64,000 nt of DNA from Shimia aestuarii (lineage in GTDB: Bacteria; Pseudomonadota; Alphaproteobacteria; Rhodobacterales; Rhodobacteraceae), in assembly GCF_900114635.1 (NCBI RefSeq), contig NZ_FOTQ01000001.1, forward strand, positions 186,001 to 250,000, written 5' to 3'. Of the stretch, positions 37,847 through 53,611 are shown one piece after another. The position numbers were made by a program, and so were the translations under genes. A model generated the notes under the pieces. The model saw nothing but the letters and a program-made list of their open reading frames with translations, was not told the DNA's origin and made no database searches. Numbering within the stretch: position 1 is the stretch's first letter; every line of letters begins with the position of its first letter.

Positions 37847-38839
37847 ATGGCGTCATACCTCAAGGTTAAGAGCGGTTGGAGAGCACTAGTAGCGCGGCAA
37901 GGTGTACGCCGCTCTAGGACGTTCCCTAACAAGACTTTGGCGCAGCGTTGGGCGGCTGAGGAAGAGCGTAAAATCTTCGAAGGTGAAGCCACACAAGACG
38001 ACGCTAGCCGCATGTCGGTAGCGGAGTTGCTAGAGAAGTATCGCCAAGAGGATAGCGGCAACTGGTCTGAAACCAAGAGCAATATGGTACGCCGAACGGC
38101 TGAGCTATTTGGCGACATGCGCGTAGACGAATTGACGCTTGCGAGTATCAAGAAGGTGGTGACGACAACTGAGCTTTATAGCGCAAGTACCTGTCGGGTT
38201 GTGCTGCAAACCCTTGCAGGAGCGTTGCGCCACGCTCGTATAGGGTGGGGTATGATAGTACCTTCTGAGGCTGTCAAAGATGCGCAGAAGGCATTGGAGA
38301 AAACAGGGCATTTATCGAAACCAGAAGAGCGCGACCGTAGGATAACGCCAGAAGAGGAAGCGGCGCTTGTGGAGCATTGGGTCAGCAATCTTGTTCCGTC
38401 TGACGTGGTGGCGTTCTTGATAGATACGCCTATCCGCTCCGGTGAAATGTGCGCCCTAACTAGGGATGATATCGAAGGCGGTATTATCACAATCCGCGAT
38501 AGGAAAGACCCAACTAAGCGGCACCGCATAGATCGCGTTCCGCTCGTAGGGCGCTCTGCTGAAATCATGGAACGCCGCTTGCGCGGCGATACGCTGCGAC
38601 CGTTCCCGTTCTCACAAGCACGGGTGTATGACGCTATCCAATCTGCGGCGGCGGCGGCGGGGTTAGACGATCTACATGTGCACGACTTGCGGCATGAAGG
38701 TATCTCTAGATTGTTCGCGGCGGGGTGGCAGGTTCCACATGTGGCGCTGATTACAGGCCACAAGCGGTGGGAAACCTTGAAGCGATACACGCACGTCACC
38801 GCCGAAGAAGTGTTGGCTAAGGTCCGTTCCCCAAGTTAG
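37847..38839 (+). CDS. int: Tyrosine recombinase (element integrase)
   Basis: 330 residues. N-terminal arm/core-binding region, then a catalytic domain with Arg (TPIRSGEMCAL), HDLRHEG (H-x-x-R), a GHKRW box and the nucleophile Tyr in KRYTHVT near residue 316. The only recognisable rightward protein besides the 32-residue frame. AGGA precedes the ATG by about 10 bases. Its stop codon lies inside repeat copy 38831-38840, and another copy is inside the gene (38455). Confidence 0.95.
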   Translation: MASYLKVKSGWRALVARQGVRRSRTFPNKTLAQRWAAEEERKIFEGEATQDDASRMSVAELLEKYRQEDSGNWSETKSNMVRRTAELFGDMRVDELTLASIKKVVTTTELYSASTCRVVLQTLAGALRHARIGWGMIVPSEAVKDAQKALEKTGHLSKPEERDRRITPEEEAALVEHWVSNLVPSDVVAFLIDTPIRSGEMCALTRDDIEGGIITIRDRKDPTKRHRIDRVPLVGRSAEIMERRLRGDTLRPFPFSQARVYDAIQSAAAAAGLDDLHVHDLRHEGISRLFAAGWQVPHVALITGHKRWETLKRYTHVTAEEVLAKVRSPS

Positions 38840-38863
38840 GGAATAGTTCTAACGCGTTATAAG
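38831..38863 (+). promoter_or_regulatory. Composite palindrome pair E1
   Basis: CCAAGTTAGG (38831) followed by TAACGCGTTA (38850), start-to-start distance 19 bp. It covers the int stop codon. Confidence 0.6.
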
Positions 38864-39183
38864 AGGATAGGTGGCCGGGACCGAAAAACCGACCGAGCAA
38901 CCGGGTCGGAAAGGGGGCAACCGCTCGATCTCCGGCGATTTCAGGGGGGTCCGGCTCACCTGATGATCTGACCCCTTCTAGAAAACTCGCAAGGCCGTGC
39001 GAGGGCAATCTTATAACGCGTTATAGACGTTCCCTAATTAGGGTAGAACATCGCTCACCTCACTCGCCTTATGGTGTAGGCTCGGCAATTTGCGCCGAAC
39101 GTCTAGACGTATGAACGAATCAATATATAGTGGTACGCCAATGGGAGGGCCATACGCAAGTCAATGCGACAAAAGGAGTCACT
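38840..39183. other. 344-base noncoding region after int
   Basis: No gene supported. It holds a CCGACC/GGTCGG hairpin (38889-38909), a CTCGCA/TGCGAG hairpin (38986-39003), composite pairs E1 and E2, and the 12-bp palindrome ACGTCTAGACGT (39099-39110). A 34-codon rightward frame at 39111 overlaps the small membrane-protein gene and has no ribosome site. Confidence 0.5.
39012..39043 (-). promoter_or_regulatory. Composite palindrome pair E2
   Basis: TATAACGCGTTATA (core TAACGCGTTA at 39014) and CCCTAATTAGGG (core at 39033), again exactly 19 bp apart but in reversed order relative to E1 and E3. Confidence 0.6.
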
Positions 39184-39282
39184 ATGGACTTAAACACACT
39201 CGCAGAAGTGAGTAACGTAATCAGCGCAATTGCTACGGTAATGATGCTGCTAATAATGCTCACTACTGTGTTAGAGCAGTAG
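39184..39282 (+). CDS. 32-residue single-span membrane protein
   Basis: Short rightward open frame: an N-terminal polar segment with Asp and Glu, then a hydrophobic helix rich in Met, Leu, Ile and Thr ending VLEQ. AAGGAG sits 5 bases before the ATG, an excellent ribosome site. It is followed by a hairpin terminator. Candidates include a holin-like, toxin-like or superinfection-exclusion peptide. Function unknown; existence inferred from the ribosome site and hydropathy. Confidence 0.5.
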   Translation: MDLNTLAEVSNVISAIATVMMLLIMLTTVLEQ

Positions 39283-39294
39283 CAGAATTGAAGG

Positions 39295-39338
39295 GGGGTA
39301 CGGTCAACGGCCCAATTAGGAAAAGCCTACCGTACCCC
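39295..39338. terminator. Bidirectional hairpin between convergent transcripts
   Basis: GGGGTACGGT (39295-39304) pairs with ACCGTACCCC (39329-39338), a perfect 10-bp stem. The 24-base loop contains the repeat copy CCCAATTAGG (39311). It separates the rightward small gene from the end of the leftward operon. Confidence 0.6.
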
Positions 39339-39381
39339 TCACACCTGCGCGACGCCCCCCAGCGCCCGCATGCTATCTCAA

Positions 39382-39750
39382 TCACCCAATTGGGTAAGTC
39401 ATATGCACCGCCTGCTCTTCCCAACCGCTGTCCTTCAAGCGTCGTAGAAACCCTCTGCGCCCGGTGAAGGTGAGACGATCACAATTCAATGCTTTTGCGT
39501 TCTGTGTGATAATCTCCTGCAACTCTAGCAGGGCGTCAGTAGTGCCGCCTGCTAGAAAGCAATGATAGGCATTGAAGCGCGGGTACTGCTGGATTTCCAT
39601 TATGGCGAAATCGTTTCCGCTAGGATAAAAATGCAGCTGTCCAGTAAGAACGCCGCGCACAATGTCATCGAAGCTATGCGAGTAGTCCGCATGGGACAGC
39701 GCCGCTTCAATCGCGTCCTTATACCCAATTAGGGAAGCGGTGATACTCAT
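39382..39750 (-). CDS. Phage protein, possibly GNAT-fold
   Basis: 122 residues, last gene of the leftward structural operon, overlapping the preceding gene by ATGA. The pattern of a central FAIMEIQQY strand, a helix (ALLELQEIITQNAKAL) and RRGFLRRLKDSGWE near the C-terminus recalls GNAT-like small phage proteins found next to ejection proteins. Assignment is weak. It contains repeat copies at both its ends (39385 and 39724). Confidence 0.55.
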   Translation of the reverse strand: MSITASLIGYKDAIEAALSHADYSHSFDDIVRGVLTGQLHFYPSGNDFAIMEIQQYPRFNAYHCFLAGGTTDALLELQEIITQNAKALNCDRLTFTGRRGFLRRLKDSGWEEQAVHMTYPIG

Positions 39751-41372
39751 CTACCAAAGATCGCGTCGTAGCCTGCTGCGGCGGCTCCACCACCTGCTGC
39801 AAGTGCAGGAGCGCTACCTACCGCTTTAGCCGCCAACCGCGCCGCTGTGCCGCTGTCACCAGTGCGGCGGCTATTCAAATACGTTACCGTGTCCAGCACT
39901 TGTGCAAACTCGCTCGTATCCTTGCCGCTTGCGTAGCGCCTATGTGTCTTGGCGTAGTTGTTGCGGAACGTAGACGGGTTGATAATGCCGCCGGGATCAA
40001 CCGCGCGGCCACGCTGTAGCGACTTGATGATCCCGTACTTTTTGCGCGCCTGCTTAAGCTCTACCGCCGCGCCCGGTCGCACCTTCTCTGCTACCGCTAC
40101 GATAGCGTCATTGAGCGTGGTTCGCACGGCGCTGTAGGCGCTGCCAAGTTCGTAGTTGCCAGCGTCAAAGGCGGTCTTAGTGCGCTTCTCCAGCAAGTTC
40201 ATAAGCGACGTAGTAGCTTGCTTATCCAGTTCGCCGTTTTTAGTAAGGCTCTCAACGTCTTTGGCGAGCTTGGCTAGCTGCGCCTCACCAGTAGGGCCGA
40301 TTTGCTCTGCCATGTCCGCTACATCGTCAATAAGCGTACCTGCTGGAATAGGCGCGTCTAGCTCGTCAATGTTCTCTTTGAAGACTTGTTGCGTTTCTTC
40401 GAGCAACTGCCCAAGGCGGCGGTTTGTGAGCGTATCTACGTTAGGTTCATCCAGAATATCACCGATGTAGCTGGTGAACGCTTGGCGGTGATCGTCGCGT
40501 GACCACCTGCTGACAAGATCGCTCCCTTGAAATGGCGTCCCTGTGATCTGAGTGCTGGAGATAAGGTCTTCGCGGTCACGCGCGCGGTTTGCTGCGGCGA
40601 GTTCGTCTGCGCTGGTGGCGTTTAGAGCGCGGGTTTCTCCCGGTGTCAGTCGGAACCCTAGCTCTTTGGCGCGCTCTGGCGTGATAAACCCTTCCAGTTC
40701 CCGCGCGGTGCGCTCAAACGTGGGGTCTGCTACGCGCTGAGCGTTGACGCTATCAGTACGGCGGCTTCTTGTCGTGATAGCGCGCGCCATTTCTACGCCC
40801 TTACGTACTCCCGGTGATGTCGCTCTTGCAGCTTTAGCAGCAGCAGAAACGCCCAAGTTGGCGGCACCGCCGATAGTGCCACCAATCGCCGCTCCCCTAA
40901 TTGGGTTATCGGGATCGCGCATAGCTCCAAGCGCCGCGTCGATACCAACTGCGGTCTTGATCCCCCTGCCAAAACCACCTGCGGCAAGTTCAGGAAGTAA
41001 CTCCCCTACCGCACTCGTGACAGGCTGCGCTTCGCGTAGGCCGCGCTGCGTAGGGTCATTGTTGGTACGTAGACGCTCACCCGCCTGAGTGATGTTCCCT
41101 TGATCCGGCGCAGTTGCGGCGATACGCGCGGCGTCTTCTAGGCTCATGTCGCCTTCGCGTGGGATTGCCGCTGTGCCAGTGGAGCCAATACCGCCTGCAA
41201 GCCGCATAGCGCCGCCTACAAGGTCTTTGACGCCTTCAACAGCGCCACGCCCTAGCGCCTCAATCGGCCCTGCTTTAGCGGCCTCGTATTCCTCTTTCGA
41301 GACTTCTACCCAACCGGGAGCGCCAACAGGTCGAATGACGTAGCGCCCGTCTTTAGTGCGTCCTGTTCTCAT
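39747..41372 (-). CDS. Internal virion/DNA-ejection protein candidate
   Basis: 541 residues. Ala/Gly-rich hydrophobic stretches in the first half (VKDLVGGAMRLAGGIGS, PIRGAAIGGTIGGAANLG) and a helical Glu/Lys/Asp-rich second half with further small-residue segments near the C-terminus (GSAPALAAGGGAAAAGYDAI). This profile is typical of podovirus ejection proteins that form a membrane channel. No enzymatic motif is visible. Assigned by position and composition. Confidence 0.55.
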   Translation of the reverse strand: MRTGRTKDGRYVIRPVGAPGWVEVSKEEYEAAKAGPIEALGRGAVEGVKDLVGGAMRLAGGIGSTGTAAIPREGDMSLEDAARIAATAPDQGNITQAGERLRTNNDPTQRGLREAQPVTSAVGELLPELAAGGFGRGIKTAVGIDAALGAMRDPDNPIRGAAIGGTIGGAANLGVSAAAKAARATSPGVRKGVEMARAITTRSRRTDSVNAQRVADPTFERTARELEGFITPERAKELGFRLTPGETRALNATSADELAAANRARDREDLISSTQITGTPFQGSDLVSRWSRDDHRQAFTSYIGDILDEPNVDTLTNRRLGQLLEETQQVFKENIDELDAPIPAGTLIDDVADMAEQIGPTGEAQLAKLAKDVESLTKNGELDKQATTSLMNLLEKRTKTAFDAGNYELGSAYSAVRTTLNDAIVAVAEKVRPGAAVELKQARKKYGIIKSLQRGRAVDPGGIINPSTFRNNYAKTHRRYASGKDTSEFAQVLDTVTYLNSRRTGDSGTAARLAAKAVGSAPALAAGGGAAAAGYDAIFGR

Positions 41373-41375
41373 GGC

Positions 41376-42299
41376 TTAGTCCTCAATTACATCGTCGTCA
41401 GATACGCCGCCTGCATACGGCGCGACAACGAACCTATCTGGATTGTCGATAGTCCACTGTGTTTCGCCGTAGCCACGGTTAAGCCGCTCAACAACGGAAC
41501 CCGCTTTTTCGAGTTCCTCTTGTACTGTCTGCGCGTCGTCTCGACTGCGGCGGCGGTACTGTTCGGCGGTTTCATTCCAGCGGCGGCGCGGTTGGTCTGT
41601 GAAAGTCGGATACGCTTCACGCAACTGCTGCAAAACAGCCGGGGGCGGCTCAGCTTCGCCGTACACTTGACGCTTGTACTCGTAGAAAAGTTGGTCGTCG
41701 ATTTCGCTCAGTTCGAACAAGAGCGCATTGCGCTGCTCTGGAGCGAGAACGCCGCCAACTTTACCTTGTTCGTTCAAGACGTCTACAATTTCGAGAGCGC
41801 GATTACGCATTTCGATGTTGTTGTTAAACGGCGCTACCGCTTCTTCTAGCGCGGTCTGCGTGGCCCAGAATGTCTCGTCGTTCTTGCGCCATTGATCGGC
41901 GTCGTAGGTAGCGCGCTTGTCGTCACGATCTAGCATGTTTTCGGTAGATTGATGTTGGCGGTTCGCTTCTGCTTCACCGGAACGCCACGCGCGGTCTACT
42001 TCTGCGTTGCGGTTCATAAGGTCATACTGCTGGTTCATACGCTGCATTTCTTCGAAGAAATCGCGGCTGCTGGCGGCGTCCTCAAAACCGATATTGGCGA
42101 ATGTCTCAGGGGTCAGCAAACCGCCGCGCATAAGCGCTTCGCGCTTCTGATCAATGTTGGCGTTGGGGTCTAGCTCATCCAGAATACCGCCTGCTTTCTT
42201 ACCACGGCGGCGGTGGTATTCAGGGATCGCGTAGCCGTGAACCAAGGCTTGTGAGCCTAAGCCTGCGGCTAGGATACCTGCTAAGATTGGGAGTACCAT
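41376..42299 (-). CDS. Internal virion protein candidate
   Basis: 307 residues. A hydrophobic N-terminus (PILAGILAAGLGSQALVHGY) is followed by a long, charged, largely helical body rich in Glu, Arg, Asn and Gln. It lies between two other ejection-type genes. Ribosome site GGAAGGAG immediately after repeat copy 42312. No recognised domain. Confidence 0.5.
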   Translation of the reverse strand: MVLPILAGILAAGLGSQALVHGYAIPEYHRRRGKKAGGILDELDPNANIDQKREALMRGGLLTPETFANIGFEDAASSRDFFEEMQRMNQQYDLMNRNAEVDRAWRSGEAEANRQHQSTENMLDRDDKRATYDADQWRKNDETFWATQTALEEAVAPFNNNIEMRNRALEIVDVLNEQGKVGGVLAPEQRNALLFELSEIDDQLFYEYKRQVYGEAEPPPAVLQQLREAYPTFTDQPRRRWNETAEQYRRRSRDDAQTVQEELEKAGSVVERLNRGYGETQWTIDNPDRFVVAPYAGGVSDDDVIED

Positions 42300-42323
42300 G
42301 TTCGCTCCTTCCCCAATTAGGGA

Positions 42324-42995
42324 TTACTTGTATCCGAAACCGAACCGTGCGCTTTTTTCGTTCGACCAGTTCTCGCCGCGCGCGGTGTCGATACCGATAC
42401 CCTCTGACTGCTGTGATTGCAGGATCGTAGGATCGCCCAACAGCCCTTGCAGCGCTTGCAGCGGCGCGAATTGCGACTGAATAGCGGTGTTGAGTAGTTG
42501 CGGCGCTCCTGCCATTGCAGCGGTGTTAGCGTTGATCGACTGACGCTGAGCGTTAGCCATGATATCGCCGTAACCTTGTGTGTACGCTTTGCCGATTTCG
42601 CCGCCCAAAGCGGCTTCTGTCAGGCCGTGACGCGCACCGCCGAAAGCACCAGCGCTTATAGCATTGTCGCCAATTTGACCGCGCCCTTGCGCGTAAATGT
42701 CGTCCAGACCGCTACGCAATCCCGTCAACTGAGCGCCTACTACCTCATTCGGGTTCCCTAGTCCCTGTAGGTTCGTAAGCGCCTGTTGTGCGGTATCTTG
42801 CGCAGCGCCGCCTGCAGCGTCGATGACAGGCTGTGCTGAGCTATACCGTCCAAGCGACATTTCGCGTAGCTGGTTCAAGAACGGCTGCTGGTTCGGGTCG
42901 ATATAGGAACCGCCTGTGCTCTGGTTATAGTTCAAGGCGTCACGGTTGCTGTAACCGTAGGAGTTACCTTTTGAAGCGCTACCACCAATAGACAT
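42324..42995 (-). CDS. Gly/Ala/Gln-rich virion protein candidate
   Basis: About 223 residues starting at the ATG at 42995 (GGAGGA 6 bases upstream, 2 bases after the preceding stop). Low-complexity Ser/Gly/Tyr/Asn N-terminus, then helical Ala/Gln-rich repeats and a region ISAGAFGGARHGLTEAALGG found in tail- or ejection-associated proteins of podoviruses. Exact role not known. Confidence 0.55.
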   Translation of the reverse strand: MSIGGSASKGNSYGYSNRDALNYNQSTGGSYIDPNQQPFLNQLREMSLGRYSSAQPVIDAAGGAAQDTAQQALTNLQGLGNPNEVVGAQLTGLRSGLDDIYAQGRGQIGDNAISAGAFGGARHGLTEAALGGEIGKAYTQGYGDIMANAQRQSINANTAAMAGAPQLLNTAIQSQFAPLQALQGLLGDPTILQSQQSEGIGIDTARGENWSNEKSARFGFGYK

Positions 42996-42997
42996 AG

Positions 42998-43567
42998 TTA
43001 TTCCTCCCATCCGAGTTGTTGGGCTTGTTCTGTGACTTGTTGGCGCGTTACCGGGCCGATAGCTGAGGCTAGGAAAGTCGCCAGCGGTACAAACAAGTCA
43101 GGATCAGGGTCAGCATCAATATCAAACCCGATTGTCCAGACGCCAGCTCGTAACCAATAGGTGACGCCTGTAACTGTAGAGAATGGTCCGTAAACGAGTG
43201 GCAAAATCTCTGTAAGCGTAGCGTCAGCTAGGAAGTATCCGATAGCGCCTGTAAGCACGATATCAGGCGCAGATACGGTAGCAGTCTCAGTAGCCGCTTC
43301 TGTTTCCGCCGCTGTTGCTAGGTTCGCAAGTGCTGTCGCCAAAGCTGTCTCACCTACGGATAAGAAGCCGTGATCAATCTCTACGTTGTTTGCGTAGTAC
43401 GTCAGTCGGATTGAGTATCCATCTGGCACAGGATCAGGTAACGCCGCCCCGTCTGCTGTGATTGTGTTTGCAGTGATCTTGCGGCGGTTCGGCACCAAAT
43501 ACTGAGCATTCGCATTATGCGGCGTGAGCGCGGTCAATGATCGCTGCTTATGTCGGATAAGTGCCAT
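42998..43567 (-). CDS. Phage protein of unknown function
   Basis: 189 residues, mostly beta-strand-like in pattern, with a short Ala/Glu/Thr helix in the middle (TALATALANLATAAETEAAT). Good ribosome site (AGGAG, 7 bases). Position between adaptor and ejection genes suggests a virion or tail-related component, but I recognise no family. Confidence 0.6.
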   Translation of the reverse strand: MALIRHKQRSLTALTPHNANAQYLVPNRRKITANTITADGAALPDPVPDGYSIRLTYYANNVEIDHGFLSVGETALATALANLATAAETEAATETATVSAPDIVLTGAIGYFLADATLTEILPLVYGPFSTVTGVTYWLRAGVWTIGFDIDADPDPDLFVPLATFLASAIGPVTRQQVTEQAQQLGWEE

Positions 43568-43569
43568 TG

Positions 43570-44196
43570 TTATCTCCTACTCGCTAAGACGCGGCCACGC
43601 GGGTTGTTGATGACGCCCCTTGCGCGCTCGTGCGCGTCCTCTTGCAACGCTACTTTCAGAGCGTCGGTAAATAGGCTGTTCCAAAGCGGTAGGCGCTCGT
43701 CTTCTCGTAGGAACATGACCGTTTGGCGCAATACGGCGTAGACGTAGAGGTTCAGAAAATCGTCAGCTACCCAACTGGCGTCGGTGTCTTGGTAGTCAGG
43801 GATTTTGTCATAGTAGACGATCTGGAAAGCTGTCGGAGTGGTGTAATCACCGCTCAGAAGGAGCGTAGAACCCACCAGCGAATAAACCGGGCGGCTCCCT
43901 AATTGGGGAGCGTTGACGCGGTTTTTGTAGAGTTCCGTAGGCGGCACATAACCGTAGGTTTCGGCAACATTGGTGAGGCGGGTCAGATCGCGGATACTGC
44001 GGTAATCTGAGGGCAATTCGAAGTCTTGGTTATCGACTGAAATAGTCGCGGTCTTAAGGCGCTGCTGCACCTTGAATAGCTGGTTCAATTCCGCGTCGGC
44101 CATCTGGATCAAGCTATCCAGATTATCAATCAACACTTGATCGTTATCTTTCCAAAGGAAAGTAGCGAGATAGGTTTTAAATTCATCGTAAGTCAT
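43570..44196 (-). CDS. Head-tail adaptor-like protein
   Basis: About 208 residues, starting at the ATG at 44196 one base after the preceding stop codon. The sequence MTYDEFKTYLATFLW, then helix and DFELPSDYRSIRDLTRL and VYDKIPDYQDTD-like segments, resembles phage adaptor proteins located after the capsid gene that connect the portal to the tail. A longer open frame upstream overlaps the 69-residue gene and is unlikely. Confidence 0.6.
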   Translation of the reverse strand: MTYDEFKTYLATFLWKDNDQVLIDNLDSLIQMADAELNQLFKVQQRLKTATISVDNQDFELPSDYRSIRDLTRLTNVAETYGYVPPTELYKNRVNAPQLGSRPVYSLVGSTLLLSGDYTTPTAFQIVYYDKIPDYQDTDASWVADDFLNLYVYAVLRQTVMFLREDERLPLWNSLFTDALKVALQEDAHERARGVINNPRGRVLASRR

Positions 44197-46459: not shown

Positions 46460-48437
46460 GTTGCTGCCCCTCTAGCTGCACCTTGTTCAGATCGGTGATG
46501 CCCTTAGCGACAATCTCCGCTTCTTTGGTTTCGGATTGCAGGCGGTCACTCCAATACTTGTAGGAAAGCTCGTCGTCGGCTTCCTTCGCCGCCTGCTGGA
46601 GCTTCGCCATTTCAAGCTGCATCTGGAGTTGAATAAGCTGCTGCTGCGCTTGTTGCTGCGCCTGTGCTTGCTGCTGCTGCGCTTGCACGTTCTGCTGCGC
46701 CGCCTGCTGTGCCGCCTGTGATTTCGGGTTGATTACGTAGCTGTCGCCATTGTCTAGGCCAGCAAAATTGCACCAATCCATGACCGTATTGTAGACGGTG
46801 GAAATATCCGCAAGGACGCCGTTTTGCCCTGCTTGGATCGCTTGTAGCTGGAAGCTGAGAAGCTGCTGCAAGGTGCGCTGCATATGTGTGCGCTCCCCTG
46901 CGGATAGGCCAGCTTTCACGCTGCATCGCTGTCGTGCGCGCCATTGCGTAGGATCAACGCTTGTCCACTCGCCAGCCATCTTTAGCTCTAGCGGTGCGTT
47001 GGAATAGGTCCGCATAAAGTAGTGCATGAGCAGGTAAATCGGGCGGATGAATGTTTCCGCTAGGTTCCTGCCCATGAACGTAACCATGAGTTCGCGCTGT
47101 GCGTATTGCCGCTCAATACCGTAAGCGGTTTCGCCTACTAGCTGCGCGTCTGCGCTCATCATGTCCAAGGCTGCGCCGCCCTTTTCTGTGCGGCGTTTGT
47201 CTTGGTACTCTAGGGCGGCGAGAATAGACGGACCCAAGTCGCGGTGTTCGACTTTGACAGGGATGCGGTTCATATCCTTGGTACGCACGGCGTTAGAGCC
47301 TTGCGCCATGTCGTCAAAGTTGTGGATATGCGGGTCGCCAATCCACGTCCCAAAGATCATACGCTGCTGGTTATCAACCCAATTGCGCATAAACTCTGTC
47401 TTGTAGTCCTGCACCGATTTCAGTCGGTCAAACAGGGATTCCCCGGCGATACGGTGACTTGATAGGAACGCCGTACCAACCGCGTAGGGGATCACTTCTG
47501 CGGGTTCGTAATCCAGCACGTAGTTAGAGGCGAGTAGGACGCGGTAGCGCTCTGCTATTCCATCATCGTCCAGATCGGCCATAACGTAGCACTCGTAGCA
47601 CTCAATATACTGCTGCGGTGTGGACGACGCGTAGCGCGTTTGCTGGTGCGACTTGTCGCGCGCCCGTGGCGTGATGTTCTGTTCGCCTGTGACGTGCTGC
47701 AACTCGTCTACGATTTGGCGCTTGTAGCCCATCTTGATAAGCTCTGAGCGCGTGTAATACAGGCGCTCAGCGAAGAAGCTTAGGTTTTGGATTTCGGTGT
47801 CTGTCGCGTTGGCGGTGTAGATGATGTTTTCGAATGGCACCGCGTCAAACAAGAACGCGCGGTCAGTTGTGGTGACAATGATCTTGTCTTTTTTCAGTTC
47901 CCGTCGCTCGTTAGGCGCGCGTGGGATCAGGAGCGCCGCAATCACCTCATTAGGGAATGGGTCGCCGTTGTCGTCAGTGAGTGGAATTGAACGCGTCGAT
48001 ACCTCGTCTTCCACTCGGATTTTAGCGGCGCAGTTGCGCAGTAGCAGCGCGTCTTTGATCGCCTCTTGCAGTTCAAGGAACCCGGCGTTCTGTTCGATGA
48101 TTACGTGATTGACCGCGTTGCTTTCCGCTCTGGCGTGTTCTTCGTCTTCCTTGCCTTTGGCTTCAAACTCTACCAGCGCGTCTGTGCTGAGCATCGGCGT
48201 CAGTTGTGCCAATACCGCGTTTACCATGTCGCCTACGTCAGTCGATACGATAGCGGCGCGGTCCTCTGGTACGCGCGGGTCTGCGTCCTGAGTACGTCCC
48301 GGCGCATTGCCAAAGTAGTAATTCAGCGCTTCCTCGTGCTGTTGCTGCATCGCCTGTTGATCGACGTTTTCAGCATTCGCAATCTCTTGCTGGAGGATGC
48401 CGCGTAGGTCTTCTTGTTTTTTGGTCTGCTTAATCAT
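46392..48437 (-). CDS. Portal protein
   Basis: 681 residues, in the size range of P22/SU10-like podovirus portals. Recognisable features: acidic N-terminal helix region, HVIIEQNAGFLELQEAIKDAL, RVLLASNYVLDYEP and a C-terminal Gln/Ala-rich coiled coil (residues about 575-620) that would form the barrel. It should form the dodecameric DNA channel. Overlaps the large terminase by 4 bases. Confidence 0.85.
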   Translation of the reverse strand: MIKQTKKQEDLRGILQQEIANAENVDQQAMQQQHEEALNYYFGNAPGRTQDADPRVPEDRAAIVSTDVGDMVNAVLAQLTPMLSTDALVEFEAKGKEDEEHARAESNAVNHVIIEQNAGFLELQEAIKDALLLRNCAAKIRVEDEVSTRSIPLTDDNGDPFPNEVIAALLIPRAPNERRELKKDKIIVTTTDRAFLFDAVPFENIIYTANATDTEIQNLSFFAERLYYTRSELIKMGYKRQIVDELQHVTGEQNITPRARDKSHQQTRYASSTPQQYIECYECYVMADLDDDGIAERYRVLLASNYVLDYEPAEVIPYAVGTAFLSSHRIAGESLFDRLKSVQDYKTEFMRNWVDNQQRMIFGTWIGDPHIHNFDDMAQGSNAVRTKDMNRIPVKVEHRDLGPSILAALEYQDKRRTEKGGAALDMMSADAQLVGETAYGIERQYAQRELMVTFMGRNLAETFIRPIYLLMHYFMRTYSNAPLELKMAGEWTSVDPTQWRARQRCSVKAGLSAGERTHMQRTLQQLLSFQLQAIQAGQNGVLADISTVYNTVMDWCNFAGLDNGDSYVINPKSQAAQQAAQQNVQAQQQQAQAQQQAQQQLIQLQMQLEMAKLQQAAKEADDELSYKYWSDRLQSETKEAEIVAKGITDLNKVQLEGQQREAQQARTNGAAERATNAGENT

Positions 48438-49723
48438 CCAAAACGCCTTCCTGAGCGCGGCTGGAATGCGCTAGGCAGTCTCCCCCAATTAGGGGAAACG
48501 GCTTGATGCATTCCGAGTACGTAAGTTTGAACGCTGTCGAAGTAGTGACTTTCCCACGAATGCAGCGGCGTCATTTTGTGGACGCGGCGCAACTCGTCGT
48601 AGTCGCTGCGATAACCGAATAGGGCTTCGACTAGCGTGGTTGTGTCCTCTTGATCGAACCAAGCGTGAGACAAGAAGTGCCGCACCTGCTCAATCGCTTC
48701 GTGTTTTTGGCGGCACCTTGGCGCAATCGTCACAGGAACGCCGCTAGCTTGCTCTACAATCTCTTTGCGCGTGGTGCCTGTGCTCAGGTCCGTCACGTTA
48801 CCGTCATGCGGTAGAATGATGTGATTAACCGGGAACGGCAGTGTTTCCCAATCCCGCACCATGTCGGATAGCTTCGTGTGCTGATACGCGCGGCAATAAA
48901 TGGCGCGGTGTTCGGTGCCTGCGTTCTGCCAGAATGTAGCAACCATGAGGTCTGACCAGCCAAGGTCTAGGCTTACAACGGTATCAAGGATGCTGTCGTA
49001 CTTGACTTGCGTGATGCGGCCCTGCTCTTGCGCCTGCTGCATTTCCTTGGCGAGATACGCGCCGCGAATAGCTGCATTGAAGCTGCACAAGAGTTCTTGC
49101 TGAAACTCTGCATCGCTCATTTCGCGCTGCATCGCTTTCACCTCATTAGGTGAGAGCACGTCAGTATCATGTACGGTTAAGATGTGGTGCGACCAGTCTG
49201 GATCGTCTTGTGTGCGCGCGTACTCGTATAGTTCAAAGAGCAGGTTGTGGCGTCCTGCTGGTGTGCCTTGGATAACGGCGCGTCCGTTGCGGTCTGCCAG
49301 CATCGGGCGAATGACCAGCTTCCAAGCTGGAGACGGGATCAACTGCGCTTCGTCCAGTACAACGCGGTCTGCATACTGCCCTCTGAGGCTGTCGTATGTT
49401 TCCGCTCCTAGAAGCTGGATGCGCGCGCCGTTGGGGAAATCGACGCGTAATTCTTGCTCATTGAATTGGATGGCTGGAATGTCGCGTGTGAATTGCTTGA
49501 TGTAGTCCCACGCAATGCGCTTCGCCTGCTTGAATGTGGGCGCGATATAGAAGCCGCGCCAATCACCTAATTGGGTAGTGAGCGCGTCTGCGGTTAACTC
49601 TGCGATTGCTTGAAAGGTCTTACCAAAGCGACGGTGAACAACTCTCACGGCGAAGCGCGCGGCTGTCGAATACAACCGCGCCTGCTCAGGTCTAAAGTTG
49701 ATCTGTACGTTTACGTCACTCAT
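48434..49723 (-). CDS. terL: Large terminase subunit
   Basis: 429 residues. Walker A variant VVHRRFGKT near residue 29, Walker B plus catalytic Glu VVLDEAQ near residue 121, motif III region IQGTPAG, and a nuclease domain beginning SLDLGWSD near residue 240 with further acidic residues. It packages DNA into the procapsid. Overlaps terS by 8 bases and portal by 4. Confidence 0.9.
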   Translation of the reverse strand: MSDVNVQINFRPEQARLYSTAARFAVRVVHRRFGKTFQAIAELTADALTTQLGDWRGFYIAPTFKQAKRIAWDYIKQFTRDIPAIQFNEQELRVDFPNGARIQLLGAETYDSLRGQYADRVVLDEAQLIPSPAWKLVIRPMLADRNGRAVIQGTPAGRHNLLFELYEYARTQDDPDWSHHILTVHDTDVLSPNEVKAMQREMSDAEFQQELLCSFNAAIRGAYLAKEMQQAQEQGRITQVKYDSILDTVVSLDLGWSDLMVATFWQNAGTEHRAIYCRAYQHTKLSDMVRDWETLPFPVNHIILPHDGNVTDLSTGTTRKEIVEQASGVPVTIAPRCRQKHEAIEQVRHFLSHAWFDQEDTTTLVEALFGYRSDYDELRRVHKMTPLHSWESHYFDSVQTYVLGMHQAVSPNWGRLPSAFQPRSGRRFG

Positions 49724-49982
49724 CGGGCGGCGGCTCCGGTTCTGAGGTCTTCCCTAATTGGGGATCGCCGCCGATTGTGACTGTGATCGTCGCGCCTTCG
49801 CCCGCTTGGTGCTCAACCGCTTTCAGTTTCGGGTGCGTGTATTCGATCAGCTTTAGCGCCAACTGGTCTTTCTTATCCCCGTCTAAAGCACTGTTGAAAC
49901 GCCGGGCAAGGTAACGCAGCGGGTCACACTCCATGCGCCGCAACACGTTTGCTGCACTCTCTCTACGCGGTCGTCCTGCCAT
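49716..49982 (-). CDS. Probable small terminase subunit
   Basis: 88 residues directly upstream of terL and overlapping it. Basic N-terminus (AGRPRRESAANVLRR), helical middle, and an acidic Pro-rich tail. Position and size fit a small terminase, which recognises the packaging site. First gene of the late operon, behind the promoter at 50037. Confidence 0.65.
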   Translation of the reverse strand: MAGRPRRESAANVLRRMECDPLRYLARRFNSALDGDKKDQLALKLIEYTHPKLKAVEHQAGEGATITVTIGGDPQLGKTSEPEPPPDE

Positions 49983-50008
49983 GACTTAATATCCTATAAA
50001 GCTCTGTT

Positions 50009-50037
50009 ATTGTTGCATAAATGCAACTGAATGTCAA
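50009..50037 (-). promoter_or_regulatory. Late promoter with internal operator
   Basis: Leftward -35 TTGACA (50037-50032), 17-base spacer, -10 AACAAT (50014-50009), start near 50002, 20 bases before terS. The dyad GTTGCAT-AA-ATGCAAC (50012-50027) sits between the boxes. Confidence 0.6.
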
Positions 50038-50091
50038 GTGCTTAATTTGTTAATTGGCGAGGCGGAAATCAACCGGGGGATGAATGGATAC

Positions 50092-50124
50092 CCTAGTTAG
50101 GTAATCTGTCTAACGCGTTATAAG
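50092..50124 (+). promoter_or_regulatory. Composite palindrome pair E3
   Basis: CCTAGTTAGG (50092) and TAACGCGTTA (50111), again 19 bp start to start, same order as E1. Confidence 0.6.
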
Positions 50125-50231
50125 CTCGATCTGGCGCGGCGCGGTCTTTCGAGCATTGACGCCTTATAGGGAAACGAAAGCCGGTCCTCGGGGGGAGGTC
50201 GGGAAGTAGGGGAGTTTCTAAGAAACTCTCT

Positions 50232-50288
50232 CCCTACCCTACTTCCCTACCACCCGCACGTTGGGACAGGTAGGGAAGTAAGGTAGGG
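50232..50288. repeat. 20-bp inverted repeat
   Basis: CCCTACCCTACTTCCCTACC (50232-50251) matches 50269-50288 in inverse with one mismatch; 17-base loop. Flanked by further GTAGGG words. Confidence 0.7.
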
Positions 50289-50340
50289 AATCCCGACCGC
50301 CTTCCCTACCTGCTAACCCATTGTTTTTAAAGGATATTTT

Positions 50341-51885
50341 TTATTCATCTGCGCCAGAGGTAGGGAGAGCATCGCTTTCCGTTACCCTAGTTAGGTAATG
50401 ATGCACCTCTTTACGCCGCTCAAAGGAAAGCGTCAGCGTACTACCGTCGCGCTCCAAAATTCCTTTGTTCTGTAGTCCTGTGAGCGTCTTCTTTATATCA
50501 CTCTTCTTGTGTTTGGCCTCTGATCTACCGGGCCAATCTTCAAGCATATGGTCAACTAACTCGTCATAATCTGGCGCGCGTTTTTGTGTGTGTAAGTATC
50601 CAAACACCACATCGACAATTCTGGCTTGGTTCTTACCCAGCGTCGTGTACCAGTCTGGCGCTTCCTGTGTCTGCGCGTCTTTCGGAGCGTCAGATTTGAG
50701 GCGCACACTATTTACCACTGGCGCTTCTGCGTATTTGGTTATCTCGTTACCATTTTCGTCAATCGACTGGTAAGCAAGCTCAGGGCAGTCGTTTACAATA
50801 ACCATATCGTACACGAGCGGATCGTAGCGAGCGCCGCGATACTTGGGATTTGGGTATGCCTCTACCTGTAGCGCCGTTTTACTAGAGCGCTTCTGTGTCG
50901 CCTGTCCGTCTGTAGCATCTACGACAACGCCAGCACCTTTAGGGACCATATACTTTTCATTATGATCTTCGCTGCTTTTAGTAGGGTGGCAGAGAATTTT
51001 GACGTGCGCCTTGTAGTATCTGGCAAGTACGAATGCGGCGTCTACAAACGGCTTCATAATATCGTCGCGGTTGCGATCCTCGTAGCTACTGTATGCCTGC
51101 ATCGTGTCGATGATGATTAGGTCGTAATTTGCAAACGGGTTAGCGGCTACGAACGCCTCAGCCGCTTCTGCATTTAGGATTAGCGAGCGGTCAAGGACGT
51201 GTATTTTGTCTCTCACCTCATTAGGGAAGTTGTGATAGTGTATTGTGGCATAAAAGCACGCCTTGACGTCCGAATAGTTCTCACCGGCGAATATGCAACC
51301 AGCGTTGAAATTGAGCGTCGGGTATTTAGGCGAAAGGTGACGCTTACTAGCGAACGTCAATAGCTCAAACGCGGCGACTGTAGTTTTGAACGAACCTTTA
51401 GGGCCAGTGTAACAGGTGACGTATCCGGCGATGTAGATGTTCTCTACGACAAACTCAGTAGTTATCTTCTCGTCAAGCACCTCTCCAAGCGTCCGCGCCC
51501 GTAGGTCCGGTTTTGCTCGTTCGGCGTCCTTCTTGCGTTGACGTTGACCAGTGAGTGTCGCTTGTATGTGGCTGGCCCATTGCTGCTGAAATTGTGGATC
51601 GTTGATCTTATCTGGCGGAACCATGTCTAACAGATAACGTGTGAACTCGGCATCGTCGGTAAAGTTCACTAAGTTATCAGGCGGCGGCGCTGTCGGTTCT
51701 GGCTCTGTGTGCGGCGCTGGCGGCGGTAGGTTAATTATCTCGTTTGCCTGCTCCATATAAGGCGCAAGCTCTTCTTCGGTGTACTCGTCGCCGTCGGCCA
51801 TAAAGACGCCCATTGCAGCTAGAGTTTTTTCCATTTCTTCTAGAGTGTCGTTCGTGCTCGGCGGAATTGATCCGTTATCTGGCAT
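50341..51885 (-). CDS. RepA-like RecA-fold ATPase (AAA_25 type)
   Basis: 514 residues. Central RecA-fold domain with Walker A TGPKGSFKTT near residue 165, Walker B DLIIIDTMQAYSS near 255 and ILCHPTKS motif; C-terminal winged-helix-like region. An acidic Pro-rich N-terminus of about 100 residues. Resembles RepA/hexameric helicase-like replication proteins of plasmids and satellites. I see no primase domain. Likely drives element replication. Ribosome site GAGG. Confidence 0.75.
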   Translation of the reverse strand: MPDNGSIPPSTNDTLEEMEKTLAAMGVFMADGDEYTEEELAPYMEQANEIINLPPPAPHTEPEPTAPPPDNLVNFTDDAEFTRYLLDMVPPDKINDPQFQQQWASHIQATLTGQRQRKKDAERAKPDLRARTLGEVLDEKITTEFVVENIYIAGYVTCYTGPKGSFKTTVAAFELLTFASKRHLSPKYPTLNFNAGCIFAGENYSDVKACFYATIHYHNFPNEVRDKIHVLDRSLILNAEAAEAFVAANPFANYDLIIIDTMQAYSSYEDRNRDDIMKPFVDAAFVLARYYKAHVKILCHPTKSSEDHNEKYMVPKGAGVVVDATDGQATQKRSSKTALQVEAYPNPKYRGARYDPLVYDMVIVNDCPELAYQSIDENGNEITKYAEAPVVNSVRLKSDAPKDAQTQEAPDWYTTLGKNQARIVDVVFGYLHTQKRAPDYDELVDHMLEDWPGRSEAKHKKSDIKKTLTGLQNKGILERDGSTLTLSFERRKEVHHYLTRVTESDALPTSGADE

Positions 51886-51915
51886 GTTTTACCTCAGTAT
51901 TTCTGAAAATTTCCC

Positions 51916-51944
51916 TTGACAAACAAGGGGTTATACGCTATAAC
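51916..51944 (+). promoter_or_regulatory. Rightward sigma70 promoter of a small RNA
   Basis: TTGACA (51916-51921), 17-base spacer, TATAAC (51939-51944): near consensus. The spacer and -10 contain the dyad TTATA-CGC-TATAA (51931-51943), a relative of TAACGCGTTA, so the promoter is probably repressible. Confidence 0.7.
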
Positions 51945-51950
51945 TAGGCT

Positions 51951-52020
51951 ATTACCTCACCTAGTTAGGTTACTAGGCCCGCCGCGCGTTTTTAGCCTTT
52001 TCGCGTAGCGGGCCTTTTTT
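51951..52020 (+). ncRNA. Predicted ~70-nt antisense regulatory RNA
   Basis: The interval from the promoter to a strong intrinsic terminator has no open frame. It lies antisense to the leader of rep, between rep (starts 51885) and the 73-residue gene. It includes repeat copy 51960. By analogy, satellite P4 immunity and many replicons use such counter-transcribed RNAs. Transcription is inferred only. Confidence 0.6.
51976..52020 (+). terminator. Intrinsic terminator of the small RNA
   Basis: GGCCCGC (51976-51982) pairs with GCGGGCC (52008-52014), inner CGCG/CGCG pairing, then T6. On the opposite strand no T run follows, so it works rightward. Confidence 0.85.
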
Positions 52021-52059
52021 CTCACTTAACCTATCAAGCGTGTATCGAAGTCCACACCT

Positions 52060-52281
52060 TTACTCCTTAACTTCGAAAGACGTGATGAAGATTGCATACA
52101 TACTGAGGTAGCCGCACACGCAGCATTCTTGCGCTTGCGTCAGCGGCTTTTTGGTATAGATCACCGCCTCTGATTTATCGTCTGGGATATGTATATCCGC
52201 GATGTTGATAGGCGATTTCGGTCTTCCGAAAAACCATGCGGCGTTCGCGATTATCTCGTCTGGTGTGTGTGGATTAGGCAT
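52060..52281 (-). CDS. Small element protein, 73 residues
   Basis: No family recognised. N-terminus PHTPDEIIANAAWFFGRP; a CCVCG cluster near residue 55 could bind metal. The ribosome site GGGGA is the right end of repeat copy 52292. Part of the early operon. Confidence 0.55.
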   Translation of the reverse strand: MPNPHTPDEIIANAAWFFGRPKSPINIADIHIPDDKSEAVIYTKKPLTQAQECCVCGYLSMYAIFITSFEVKE

Positions 52282-52292
52282 TTTTAGTTCCC

Positions 52293-52538
52293 CTAATTAG
52301 GTTTGCGTTTCTTTAGACAAGCGCCGCATTTCAATTCCATTTTGTTTTTGCGGCGCTTGAGCTTGTCGATTTGTGTGACGCATTCTTTTTTGCAGGCGTC
52401 ACAGGTGTAATGCGCTTCCATACGGCCTTGGTCGCCGCGCTTAAGCTCTACGTAGAGCAAGAGACGAGCGGGCCAGCCACTCCGCTCAAGCATACGCTTG
52501 AAGTAGTCAGGGCTTTTCTTGAGCGCATTAGTGACCAT
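52293..52538 (-). CDS. Small zinc-ribbon-like protein, 81 residues
   Basis: Two Cys pairs, CDACKKEC and KCGACLKK, in a basic Lys/Arg-rich C-terminal half form a probable zinc ribbon, suggesting nucleic-acid or protein binding. Its stop codon lies in repeat copy 52292. Overlaps the next upstream gene by TGATG. Confidence 0.6.
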   Translation of the reverse strand: MVTNALKKSPDYFKRMLERSGWPARLLLYVELKRGDQGRMEAHYTCDACKKECVTQIDKLKRRKNKMELKCGACLKKRKPN

Positions 52539-52861
52539 CAGTTGAGTTTGCGCTTGGATTGCAGTTGCGTCGCATTCTCAAGTTGTTGCTGCAAAGCGTT
52601 GATCTGGCGTTGCAGCTTACGAATGTCGTCATAATCTTGGTGGCCCCATTCGTTGAGGCGCGTTTCGATAGCGGTCAGCTTGTCGATGATAGCAAGCGAC
52701 TGTTTGCGTAGTTCGTCTTGGCCGCTGAGCAGGGCGCGTAGGAACGCTACCACTGTCTCTAGGCGCTCGTTGTACGCCTGCATCTGAGCGAGGAACGTAG
52801 TAGGTTCTTGGCCCTCAGAGGTTGCGAACAACATGTCGTATAATCCGACTTGTTTAGTCAT
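52538..52861 (-). CDS. Coiled-coil small protein, 107 residues
   Basis: Mostly helical with heptad-like Leu/Ile spacing over residues 30-100 and a Gln-rich end. No domain recognised. Early operon member. Confidence 0.6.
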   Translation of the reverse strand: MTKQVGLYDMLFATSEGQEPTTFLAQMQAYNERLETVVAFLRALLSGQDELRKQSLAIIDKLTAIETRLNEWGHQDYDDIRKLQRQINALQQQLENATQLQSKRKLN

Positions 52862-52875
52862 TGGGTTAGCCTTTC

Positions 52876-53139
52876 TTAGTGTTTGTCGTAGTACGGCGCA
52901 GCTAGTGCCGCTTCCAGCGCCGCTATTCGGTCCTCTTGAGCGCGGATCGTGTTCATAAGCTGCTCAATGATTGTGTTGTGCGAGTTGACGCCGTTGTTGA
53001 GCGTGGTCGCCGCCTTCGAAAGCTCGTTGATTTGAGCGTCTTGAGTTGAAAGCACGCCGCCTACTCGATCGACAAAGTGCATAACTTCGCCTTTGGTGGC
53101 GGGTTCGTTCGGGTCGTAACCTAATTGGGTGTCACTCAT
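52876..53139 (-). CDS. Coiled-coil small protein, 87 residues
   Basis: After an N-terminal TQLGYDPNEP segment, an amphipathic helix with regular hydrophobic spacing (IIEQLMNTIRAQEDRIAALE) continues to the end. Repeat copy 53120 lies in its first codons. Overlaps the HTH gene by 4 bases. Confidence 0.6.
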   Translation of the reverse strand: MSDTQLGYDPNEPATKGEVMHFVDRVGGVLSTQDAQINELSKAATTLNNGVNSHNTIIEQLMNTIRAQEDRIAALEAALAAPYYDKH

Positions 53140-53336
53140 ACCGCGATCCCCGCACTGTTGGTGCGTTCGCGCTCTGCTTCATATTCGAGAATGTCGCTCA
53201 GTCGGTACAACACCTTCTTGTGACCGAGTTTGATAAACTTCGGACCTGCGCCACGGCAACGTACTACCGCAAGCGAACCTACAGTCGTATGCCAGCGGTC
53301 GGCTAGCTCTTGAGTGGTGAGGAAAGTCTCTTTCAT
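53136..53336 (-). CDS. AlpA/excisionase-like HTH protein
   Basis: 66 residues. LTTQELADRWHTTVGSLAVV...KFIKLGHKKVLYRLSDI is the MerR-like HTH_17 pattern of AlpA and excisionases. First gene of the early operon. In P4-like satellites and PICIs such proteins activate integrase/excision and early genes. It is the only clear DNA-binding regulator in the element, although too small to resemble a CI repressor. Confidence 0.75.
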   Translation of the reverse strand: MKETFLTTQELADRWHTTVGSLAVVRCRGAGPKFIKLGHKKVLYRLSDILEYEAERERTNSAGIAV

Positions 53337-53460
53337 AATGCCACCATTCCCCTACTTAGGGGTTGTCGGCAGTGCCCGAGTTTGCCAGTGGTGCCGTCGT
53401 GTTTTGTTACGCAGTCTGAGGCGAATGTTCTGCGGGGGGCTATTCTTGCTAAGCTATTGT

Positions 53461-53489
53461 AATCTAACAGTAATTTACGATAATGTCAA
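53461..53489 (-). promoter_or_regulatory. Early leftward promoter
   Basis: TTGACA (53489-53484), 17-base spacer, TAGATT (53466-53461); start near 53454, about 118 bases before the HTH gene. GTTGCAAA words lie 20-55 bases upstream. Confidence 0.6.
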
Positions 53490-53551
53490 GCACTATTTTC
53501 GGAAATGACTTTGCAACTTTGCAACATTGGCTTTGCAAGTTAGCAAAAACA

Positions 53552-53570
53552 AATTACTCATATTTTACTC
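53552..53570 (+). other. Probable integrase arm-binding repeats, right
   Basis: AATTACTCA (53552-53560) and TTTTACTC (53563-53570) match the words next to attL. Confidence 0.45.
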
Positions 53571-53611
53571 GTCGTTAAGATTTTGTTAACCTTATTAGGT
53601 AGTTAGCCTTA

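What the first reader, a model, noticed from the sequence alone, without database searches (positions are those of the whole stretch)
38455..53599. Twenty-five dispersed near-palindromic sites, frame-independent and oriented with transcription
The 10-mer CCYAAYKRGG (typical copies CCTAATTAGG, CCCAATTGGG, CCTAACTAGG, CCTAATGAGG) occurs 25 times in 15.9 kb. The pattern CCYAANNRGG would be expected about once per strand by chance. The 15 copies inside genes fall 5/5/5 in the three reading frames (reading P-N-E/W, Q-L-G, and P-I/L-I/L-T), so protein coding cannot explain them. Eleven of twelve asymmetric copies point leftward like the operon; the exception is in the rightward integrase gene. This resembles stoperators of cluster A mycobacteriophages, where a repressor blocks elongation at many sites, but the motif and element type differ. 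A counting-type silencing, partitioning or protection system is possible.
Basis: partly seen in the sequence, partly recalled or inferred. Interest (0 to 1): 0.92.

Follow-up and report, generated by a model that had tools for sequence, protein, structure and literature searches.

The report
Phage satellite carries its helper's password
A small virus-like parasite in a bacterial chromosome carries a short DNA password about every 650 bases, and related parasites carry different passwords; two of the three passwords closely match those written all over the genomes of two different full-size viruses, which suggests that each parasite copies the identity tag of the virus it depends on.

Summary
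The sites are real: 22 match CCYAAYKRGG exactly, 25 by weight matrix, all in a 15.9-kb integrated element. Thirteen exact palindromes lie in the element, 4 in the rest of the 4.23-Mb genome. Frames are 5/5/5. Facing bases do not covary, so these look like DNA sites for a dimer, not RNA hairpins.

The element is satellite-like: integrase, helicase, terminase, portal, capsid, adaptor; no tail hub, spike or polymerase detected. Two sister elements carry different palindromes; 5 of 8 sites of one map within 30 nt of sites here (p=0.0006).

A clade of uncultured LUZ24-like podophages carries such sites genome-wide (21-46 on five contigs over 16 kb), in both gene directions; spacing is clearly more even than chance in three of five. 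Codes cut across the trees: this element's matrix hits phage G1026 40 times (0.2 expected), five clade-mates 1-7 times; sister L018's hits phage G1048 39 times, five clade-mates never; portals are 20-23% identical. Six other named relatives lack it.

Stoperator-like polarity holds here (11 of 12) but not consistently in the phages. Best reading: a genome-wide label read by a helper-phage protein and copied by the satellite. Binder and effect are unidentified.

The parts
37723..53624 (.). integrated satellite-like element with its flanking 13-bp direct repeats (ACCTTTCGCTAAC at 37723-37735 and 53612-53624)
   Evidence: repeat; in a same-genus genome (L283) the two flanks are adjacent and overlap by exactly 13 bp (empty site)
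37847..38839 (+). tyrosine integrase
   Evidence: PF00589 5.5e-16
39382..39750 (-). 122-aa protein with homologues in code-bearing phages and satellites; two of six similar phage records call it acetyltransferase
39747..41372 (-). 541-aa protein, probable internal virion protein (inference)
41376..42299 (-). 307-aa protein, probable internal virion protein (inference)
42324..43010 (-). 228-aa protein with a homologue in the late region of G1026
42998..43567 (-). 189-aa protein
43570..44343 (-). SU10-type head-tail adaptor
   Evidence: PF24175 1.3e-17
44421..45464 (-). SU10-type major capsid protein
   Evidence: PF17236 4e-58
45466..46395 (-). scaffold
   Evidence: phrog_3927 1.6e-07
46392..48437 (-). 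SU10-type portal
   Evidence: PF23899 1.7e-132
48434..49723 (-). large terminase
   Evidence: PF03237 2.9e-11
49716..49982 (-). 88-aa protein in the small-terminase position (inference)
   Evidence: alignment with L017, L018, L016
50341..51885 (-). AAA_25 protein, RepA-like helicase (inference)
   Evidence: PF13481 3.7e-11
52060..53139 (-). four small early genes (73, 81, 107, 87 aa)
   Evidence: no Pfam family at gathering score
53136..53336 (-). AlpA-like HTH_17 protein
   Evidence: PF12728 0.0016 (below Pfam gathering score)
38455..38464 (+). dispersed site, in integrase, reversed polarity (L017 has one 24 nt away)
38831..38840 (-). dispersed site (CCTAACTTGG), at integrase stop codon
39033..39042 (.). 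dispersed site, intergenic between convergent genes
39311..39320 (.). dispersed site, intergenic
39385..39394 (.). dispersed site, end of g122
39724..39733 (.). dispersed site, start of g122 (L018 has one 18 nt away)
40896..40905 (.). dispersed site in g541
42312..42321 (.). dispersed site, g228/g307 junction (L017 has one 3 nt away)
43898..43907 (.). dispersed site in adaptor
44416..44425 (.). dispersed site at capsid stop codon (L017 has an exact same-code site at this junction, 8430)
46079..46088 (-). dispersed site in scaffold
46218..46227 (-). dispersed site in scaffold (L017 16 nt, L018 29 nt away)
47945..47954 (-). dispersed site in portal (L017 25 nt away)
48484..48493 (.). dispersed site, end of TerL
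49141..49150 (-). dispersed site in TerL
49566..49575 (.). dispersed site in TerL
49753..49762 (.). dispersed site at TerS/TerL junction, same alignment column in all three satellites
50092..50101 (-). dispersed site, intergenic
50386..50395 (-). dispersed site in the AAA_25 gene
51216..51225 (-). dispersed site in the AAA_25 gene
51960..51969 (-). dispersed site, intergenic
52292..52301 (.). dispersed site, overlaps gene end, 11 bp before the next start
53120..53129 (.). dispersed site, start of g87
53351..53360 (-). dispersed site CCTAAGTAGG, leader of the AlpA-like gene
53590..53599 (-). dispersed site CCTAATAAGG, just inside the right repeat

Best explanation
The sites form a genome-wide label: near-palindromic, fairly evenly spaced binding sites for a dimeric, sequence-specific DNA-binding protein that belongs to a clade of LUZ24-like podophages. 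The 15.9-kb element is a capsid-encoding, apparently tail-less satellite of such phages. Different phages use different versions (codes) of the site, and a satellite carries the code of a phage, most likely its helper, so that the helper's protein treats satellite DNA as phage DNA. Shown: the sites; their restriction, among what was tested, to this phage clade and these satellites; near-symmetry without pair covariation in most tests; placement in both transcription units; positional conservation between W (the window's element) and L017; code match of W with G1026 and of L018 with G1048 across a deep split in the portal and capsid trees; rarity in the host. Inferred: that a phage-encoded dimer binds; that G1026-like and G1048-like phages are helpers; that the effect is on the DNA as a whole (protection, organisation, packaging or replication licensing) rather than on single promoters.
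For: Enrichment. Satellites L017 (8 sites used, TCCCCTANNNTAGGGGA) and L018 (9 used, GTCCCCACYRGTGGGGAC) share the gene order with other codes. Positions: 5 of 8 L017 sites within 30 nt of W sites, null 0.78, p=0.0006; L018 3 of 9, p=0.026 at 30 nt. Protein identity to the sisters is lower at sites, 0.35 against 0.46 over 25 gene-site comparisons, p=0.023. No excess of facing-base pairs within sites (W p=0.16, L017 0.35, L018 0.74; 106 phage sites, four of five arm positions p>0.4). Phages: G1026 45 sites in 30 kb, G1036 46 in its first 40 kb, G1037 39, G1027 21, G1048 30. Spacing more even than random: G1026 0 of 20000, G1036 0 of 5000, G1037 p=0.02. Cross-code matrix: W matrix 40 in G1026 (0.2 expected), 1-7 in five clade-mates, 0-1 in six other phages; L018 matrix 39 in G1048 (0.4 expected), 0 in the other five clade phages, 0-1 in six others. 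Trees: satellites split from phages with support 1.000; portal identity W-G1026 20%, L018-G1048 23%, W-L018 59%. Homologues shared with G1026: portal, capsid and g122 in all three satellites, adaptor and g228 in W and L017; no homologue of its tail hub, collar, spike, DNA polymerase or helicase in the satellites' ORFs. The 4 sites elsewhere in the host stand alone.
Against: The binder is not identified: no non-structural protein common to the code-bearing phages and satellites was found, and the small-terminase profiles, both shallow, do not match. L017 has no exact phage match; its matrix hits G1036 10, G1048 8, G1037 7, G1027 4 and G1038 3 times. The W matrix also exceeds shuffles in code-B phages (G1037 7 against 0.8, G1027 5 against 0.0, G1036 4 against 0.2), so codes are not wholly separate. 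The W and L018 phage matches came from scans with those very codes, so ascertainment favours them; the same kind of scan with L017's code also gave an unrelated contig with three copies (L251), and L228 (two exact W-type sites in 4 kb) was not followed. Code A could be ancestral (L017 keeps two exact type-A sites, 8430 and 9432), making W-G1026 a shared retention. L016, without a recognised code, groups with W inside the satellites in the capsid tree, though outside them in the portal tree. In G1026 one of seven arm positions, the outermost, shows a positive left-right association (p=0.038, uncorrected). Spacing evenness is not significant in W (p=0.13) or G1048 (p=0.09) and borderline in G1027 (0.049 and 0.055). 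W's strong polarity is not explained. All phage contigs are uncultured and may be fragments; L018 lacks its early region, so absences there mean little.
Confidence: 0.5

Rival explanations
1. Stoperator-like silencing: a repressor bound at many sites blocks transcript elongation through the element and, in the phages, during lysogeny. (Rivals here are not mutually exclusive, so odds need not add to one.)
For: Dispersal, about 25 copies, 11 of 12 asymmetric copies point leftward like the operon and the 12th lies in the rightward integrase gene; L017 4 of 5 by my inspection of the sites; codes drift between relatives as stoperators do (PMC6550527 passages).
Against: Polarity is absent or strand-fixed in the phages and mixed in L018 by inspection; sites are near-symmetric and also stand in convergent intergenic DNA (39033, 39311); no repressor recognised besides a weak AlpA-like protein.
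Confidence: 0.2
2. Recognition sites of a strand-specific nicking system, like the localized single-strand interruptions known in LUZ24-like, phiKMV-like and T5-like phages.
For: Same broad phage group; there too dispersed short motifs, similar positions between relatives, consensus differing between phages, function unknown (PMC3517423 and PMC11780129); G1027 shows strand-fixed polarity.
Against: In the LUZ24-like phages described there the motif is non-palindromic, on one strand only, 8-14 per genome. Here sites are near-palindromic, 21-46 per contig over 16 kb, and without overall strand bias in G1026, G1036 and G1037.
Confidence: 0.12
3. Shared ancestry only: the code was inherited with the structural genes and W simply retains the ancestral version; no helper matching.
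For: L017 keeps two exact type-A sites; the trait was found only in this phage clade and these satellites.
Against: It needs code C as well as code A to be present on both sides of the deepest split in the portal and capsid trees; L016, on the satellite side, has no recognised code.
Confidence: 0.25
4. RNA hairpins or ribosome-binding-site structures acting on the transcripts.
For: Some sites end just before start codons (52292; 14 of 39 in G1037 and 7 of 46 in G1036 end 2-14 nt before a start codon).
Against: Arms vary independently in most tests, and sites lie in all three frames and far from starts.
Confidence: 0.03

Closest known systems
Stoperators of cluster A mycobacteriophages
   Same: Twenty to thirty short dispersed sites, code differing between relatives together with the repressor (PMC9283540, PMC6550527 passages)
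   Different: Stoperators are 13-bp asymmetric sites bound by a monomer and oriented with transcription; here sites are near-palindromic, without consistent transcription polarity in the phages, in another phage group, and shared between satellite and phage
Localized single-strand interruptions of LUZ24-like phages tf and Rembedalsseter, and of phiKMV-like and T5-like phages
   Same: Dispersed motif in related podophages, conserved positions, drifting consensus, function unknown (PMC3517423, PMC11780129)
   Different: In tf and its kin a one-strand, non-palindromic motif, 8-14 copies; here near-palindromic, denser, mostly without strand bias
Capsid-forming PICIs (cfPICI)
   Same: Small integrated satellite with integrase, AlpA-like gene, own packaging and capsid genes and no tail genes found (family features recalled; the family is named in the PMC11773190 and PMC10803314 passages)
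   Different: SU10/LUZ24-type podophage head genes, apparently a Rhodobacterales-type host (inference), and the genome-wide site code
Dispersed self-labels such as DNA uptake sequences or Chi (recalled)
   Same: Short sequence spread about once per kilobase over a whole genome
   Different: Near-palindromic dimer-type sites of one phage clade, with different codes in close relatives

Membership tests
Cluster A stoperator system | many dispersed sites in the element, few outside | tested here: met
Cluster A stoperator system | asymmetric site (bound by a monomer) | tested here: not met
   sites are near-palindromic with independent halves; the binding protein itself was not tested
Cluster A stoperator system | orientation follows transcription | tested here: inconclusive
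   met in W (11 of 12), not met in G1026, G1036, G1037, G1027
Cluster A stoperator system | encoded repressor with HTH and Stoperator domains | tested here: inconclusive
   none recognised among the element's ORFs by Pfam or PHROGs; whether those libraries hold the Stoperator domain was not checked
Cluster A stoperator system | blocks elongation in vivo | not testable with these tools
   needs transcription assays
Localized single-strand interruption motif | motif on one strand only | tested here: not met
   near-palindromic; no overall strand bias in G1026, G1036, G1037; bias present in G1027
Localized single-strand interruption motif | actual nicks in virion DNA | not testable with these tools
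   no native sequencing data
Capsid-forming phage satellite | integrated element with integrase and own head and packaging genes | tested here: met
Capsid-forming phage satellite | no tail genes | tested here: inconclusive
   no homologue of the G1026 tail hub, collar or spike; but PHROGs gives weak tail-type matches to the adaptor (0.00017) and to two small early proteins (0.0016, 0.01), and several proteins have no assigned function
Capsid-forming phage satellite | mobilised by a helper phage | not testable with these tools
   no infection data; helper inferred from code and structural homology

The most novel reading that the evidence does not exclude
A phage 'password' system: each podophage genome is labelled about every 0.65-1.4 kb with its own palindromic code, read by a phage protein that separates self from foreign DNA during infection (for example sparing it from phage nucleases, or licensing its replication or packaging); satellites parasitise the phage by carrying the same password throughout their own genes, and must rewrite the password at conserved positions when they change helper.
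Probability: 0.4. Interest if true: 0.92.

Novelty: categorically new. Interest (0 to 1): 0.84.

Why it matters
It would be a DNA self-identity label spread over whole phage genomes, with many codes, and a satellite trait that points to the helper from sequence alone. It makes two open matters testable: how a satellite's DNA is accepted by the helper's machinery, and what dispersed motifs in LUZ24-like phages are for. It also gives a simple way to propose pairs of uncultured satellites and uncultured helpers.

Tried and rejected
AlpA-like protein as binder: L016 has such an ORF but no site of these codes. Small terminase as universal binder: satellite and phage families do not match (shallow profiles). 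RNA hairpins: no covariation in most tests. A 120-aa HTH-like protein of G1027: no significant homologue among the ORFs of G1026, G1036, G1037, G1038, G1039 and the satellites (run before G1048 was found and without the last 1.4 kb of G1036). Host regulator: only 4 exact sites outside the element. In the family scan of 394 genomes the own genome had the highest count (12, control 2); the next, G257 (10, control 6), has its five listed sites scattered; place lists are capped.

Motif-finder false alarms and loose ends: in GC-rich or repetitive sequences it gives high scores that I read as codon bias without a further test (phiM5 43.7, L089 30.7, L016 26.3, L085 25.1, L024 25.1, L210 23.5). L268 (AACCCC-n10-GGGGTT, 8 sites, score 27.9) and phiM5 TGACAT-n11-ATGTCA (18 at two mismatches each) were not settled. 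L251 holds three exact copies of the L017 code, two of them in a repeated sequence of an apparently unrelated phage, and was set aside. L228, L196 and other contigs with few sites from the pattern scans were not followed as systems. Of 18 portal relatives, L275 and L276 were not tested for codes.

Rows dropped before counts: for the L017 matrix the palindromes at 8445, 12364 and 14277 and the two type-A sites were left out (8 used); for L018 the weak site at 3646 (9 used). In G1027, three of 23 scan hits are shifted copies (20 used; 21 found by the rule). In one search the G1036 pieces overlap by 1 kb, so its 50 may count sites twice; one search gives 46. The end of G1036 (40001-41407) was not. 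The 'typeB' rule finds only 1 L017 site because the centre differs.

Searches of print: (open-licence PMC library only; listings seen) showed no report of such palindromic codes in LUZ24-like phages or satellites; most subscription papers are not in that library.

Full report
1. Observation. The pattern CCYAAYKRGG matches 22 positions of the window, all at 38455-53129, against 1.93 strand-matches expected (35 observed). With a weight matrix there are 25 sites, including 38831, 53351 and 53590. The 15 sites within genes fall 5/5/5 in the frames. The own genome holds 13 exact palindromes in the element and 4 elsewhere in 4.23 Mb. Eleven of 12 asymmetric copies point leftward; the exception lies in the integrase gene.

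2. The element (W). It is 15.9 kb, flanked by a 13-bp repeat at 37723 and 53612. In a same-genus genome the two flanks are adjacent and overlap by exactly those 13 bp, an empty site. It encodes an integrase and a leftward operon of an AlpA-like HTH_17 protein (weak), four small proteins, an AAA_25 protein, probable small and clear large terminase, SU10-type portal, scaffold, capsid and adaptor, and five further proteins. Of 13 proteins of the related phage G1026 used as queries against the ORFs of this element and its sisters, tail hub, collar, spike, two internal proteins, DNA polymerase, helicase, exonuclease and the small-terminase-like protein had no match at E<0.1; adaptor, g122 and g228 matched, and the primase matched the L017 AAA protein at 5e-07. 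It looks like a capsid-encoding satellite; the host appears to be Rhodobacterales-like (inference from flanking genes).

3. Sister satellites. L017 (15.9 kb) and L018 (11.5 kb, early region missing) share its gene order (portals 57-59% identical). They carry dispersed palindromes with other sequences: TCCCCTANNNTAGGGGA (8 sites used) and GTCCCCACYRGTGGGGAC (9 sites used). Mapped through gene alignments, 5 of 8 L017 sites lie within 30 nt of a W site (0.78 expected, p=0.0006); for L018 it is 3 of 9 (p=0.026 at 30 nt, not significant at 60 or 100 nt). All three have a site in the same alignment column at the small-terminase/large-terminase junction, where the encoded peptide differs. L017 also keeps two exact W-type sites, one at the capsid/adaptor junction where W has one. 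L016, a more distant relative with an AlpA-like ORF, shows no site of these codes and no motif that I trust.

4. Nature of the site. Within sites, facing bases do not pair beyond chance (W p=0.16, L017 0.35, L018 0.74). For 106 sites of three phages, four of five arm positions vary independently; the fifth shows a negative association that I attribute to the selection threshold. In G1026 one of seven positions, the outermost, shows a positive association (p=0.038, uncorrected). On balance this is what a DNA-binding dimer with two independent half-sites would leave, and not what an RNA hairpin would.

5. The phages. Scanning viral contigs for exact codes led to G1026, a 30-kb podophage contig with 20 exact W-type palindromes (control 0) and 45 within one mismatch, and to G1027. 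The contigs G1036 (41 kb), G1037 (39 kb), G1027 and G1038, whose portals are 43-47% identical to that of G1026, carry a 19-bp code TTMCCCTNANTNAGGGKAA; G1039 (44%) has 4 in 6.7 kb. Of ten more distant portal relatives tried (24-28%), none showed these codes in the motif finder, and four of them and six named phages (phiM5, LUZ24, RHph_N3_2, Octadecabacter virus DB2, MW202711, MW202879) had 0 type-B sites and at most 1 exact type-A site. Sites cover both transcription units. Spacing is more even than random in G1026 (CV 0.58, 0 of 20000), G1036 (CV 0.54, 0 of 5000) and G1037 (p=0.02), borderline in G1027, not significant in W (p=0.13) or G1048 (p=0.09).

6. A prediction tested. If each satellite carries a phage's code, a phage with L018's code should exist. 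Cross-matrix: the W matrix scores 40 hits in G1026, 1 in G1048 and 2-7 in four code-B phages, where shuffles give 0-0.8; the L018 matrix 39 in G1048 and 0 in G1026, G1036, G1037, G1027 and G1038; the L017 matrix 10 in G1036, 8 in G1048, 7 in G1037, 4 in G1027, 3 in G1038, 0 in G1026; shuffles give at most 1.2. Portal and capsid trees separate satellites from phages with support 1.000; identity between code partners is 20-23% (portal) and 28-36% (capsid). L016, without a code, lies outside the three satellites in the portal tree but beside W in the capsid tree. Codes A and C therefore occur on both sides of the split.

7. Mechanism. I think a phage-encoded dimer reads the code over the whole genome, and that the satellite copies the code so as to be read too. 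The evenness and the indifference to gene direction argue for an effect on DNA as such. Which protein, and whether it protects, organises, packages or licenses DNA, is not known. Stoperator-like silencing remains a rival because of W's own polarity; nicking remains one because LUZ24-like phages carry dispersed nick motifs (PMC3517423 passages and Discussion; PMC11780129 passages). Shared ancestry of codes without helper matching is the most sober rival.

8. Papers seen: PMC9283540, PMC6550527, PMC11780129, PMC10803314 and PMC11773190 in passages; PMC3517423 in passages and its Discussion; the rest as search listings. Cluster A stoperators are 13-bp, asymmetric, oriented with transcription, bound by a monomer. 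cfPICI biology beyond its naming, DNA uptake sequences and Chi are recalled.

Noticed in passing
window 53506-53546; also near 37738-37852 and 53551-53568: Direct repeats with TTTGCAA beside the right repeat, and TTTACTC-type repeats near both ends (read); possibly excisionase and integrase arm sites.
   Followed up: no
L017:8430 and L017:9432: Two exact W-type sites in an element that otherwise uses another code: possible relics of a code change.
   Followed up: partly
L279:4652, 4867, 5425, 5660 (G1037): In the early region these sites end just before start codons, so that the right arm AGGGGA could serve as the Shine-Dalgarno sequence.
   Followed up: partly
L250 (G1027): Strong one-strand polarity of the 19-bp sites (right arm better in 17 of 21) across oppositely oriented gene blocks, unlike G1036 and G1037.
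   Followed up: partly
window 39382-39750: The 122-aa acetyltransferase-like gene has homologues in W, L017, L018, G1026, G1036, G1037 and G1048 and was not found in L016 (whose contig may end before it); but homologues also exist in phages without sites.
   Followed up: no
L268: Distant portal relative with 8 near-palindromes AACCCC-n10-GGGGTT in 13 kb; could be another code or chance.
   Followed up: no
window 50009-50037: Promoter-like TTGACA-17-AACAAT before the small-terminase position, possible late promoter (the promoter scan as a whole is not above shuffles).
   Followed up: no
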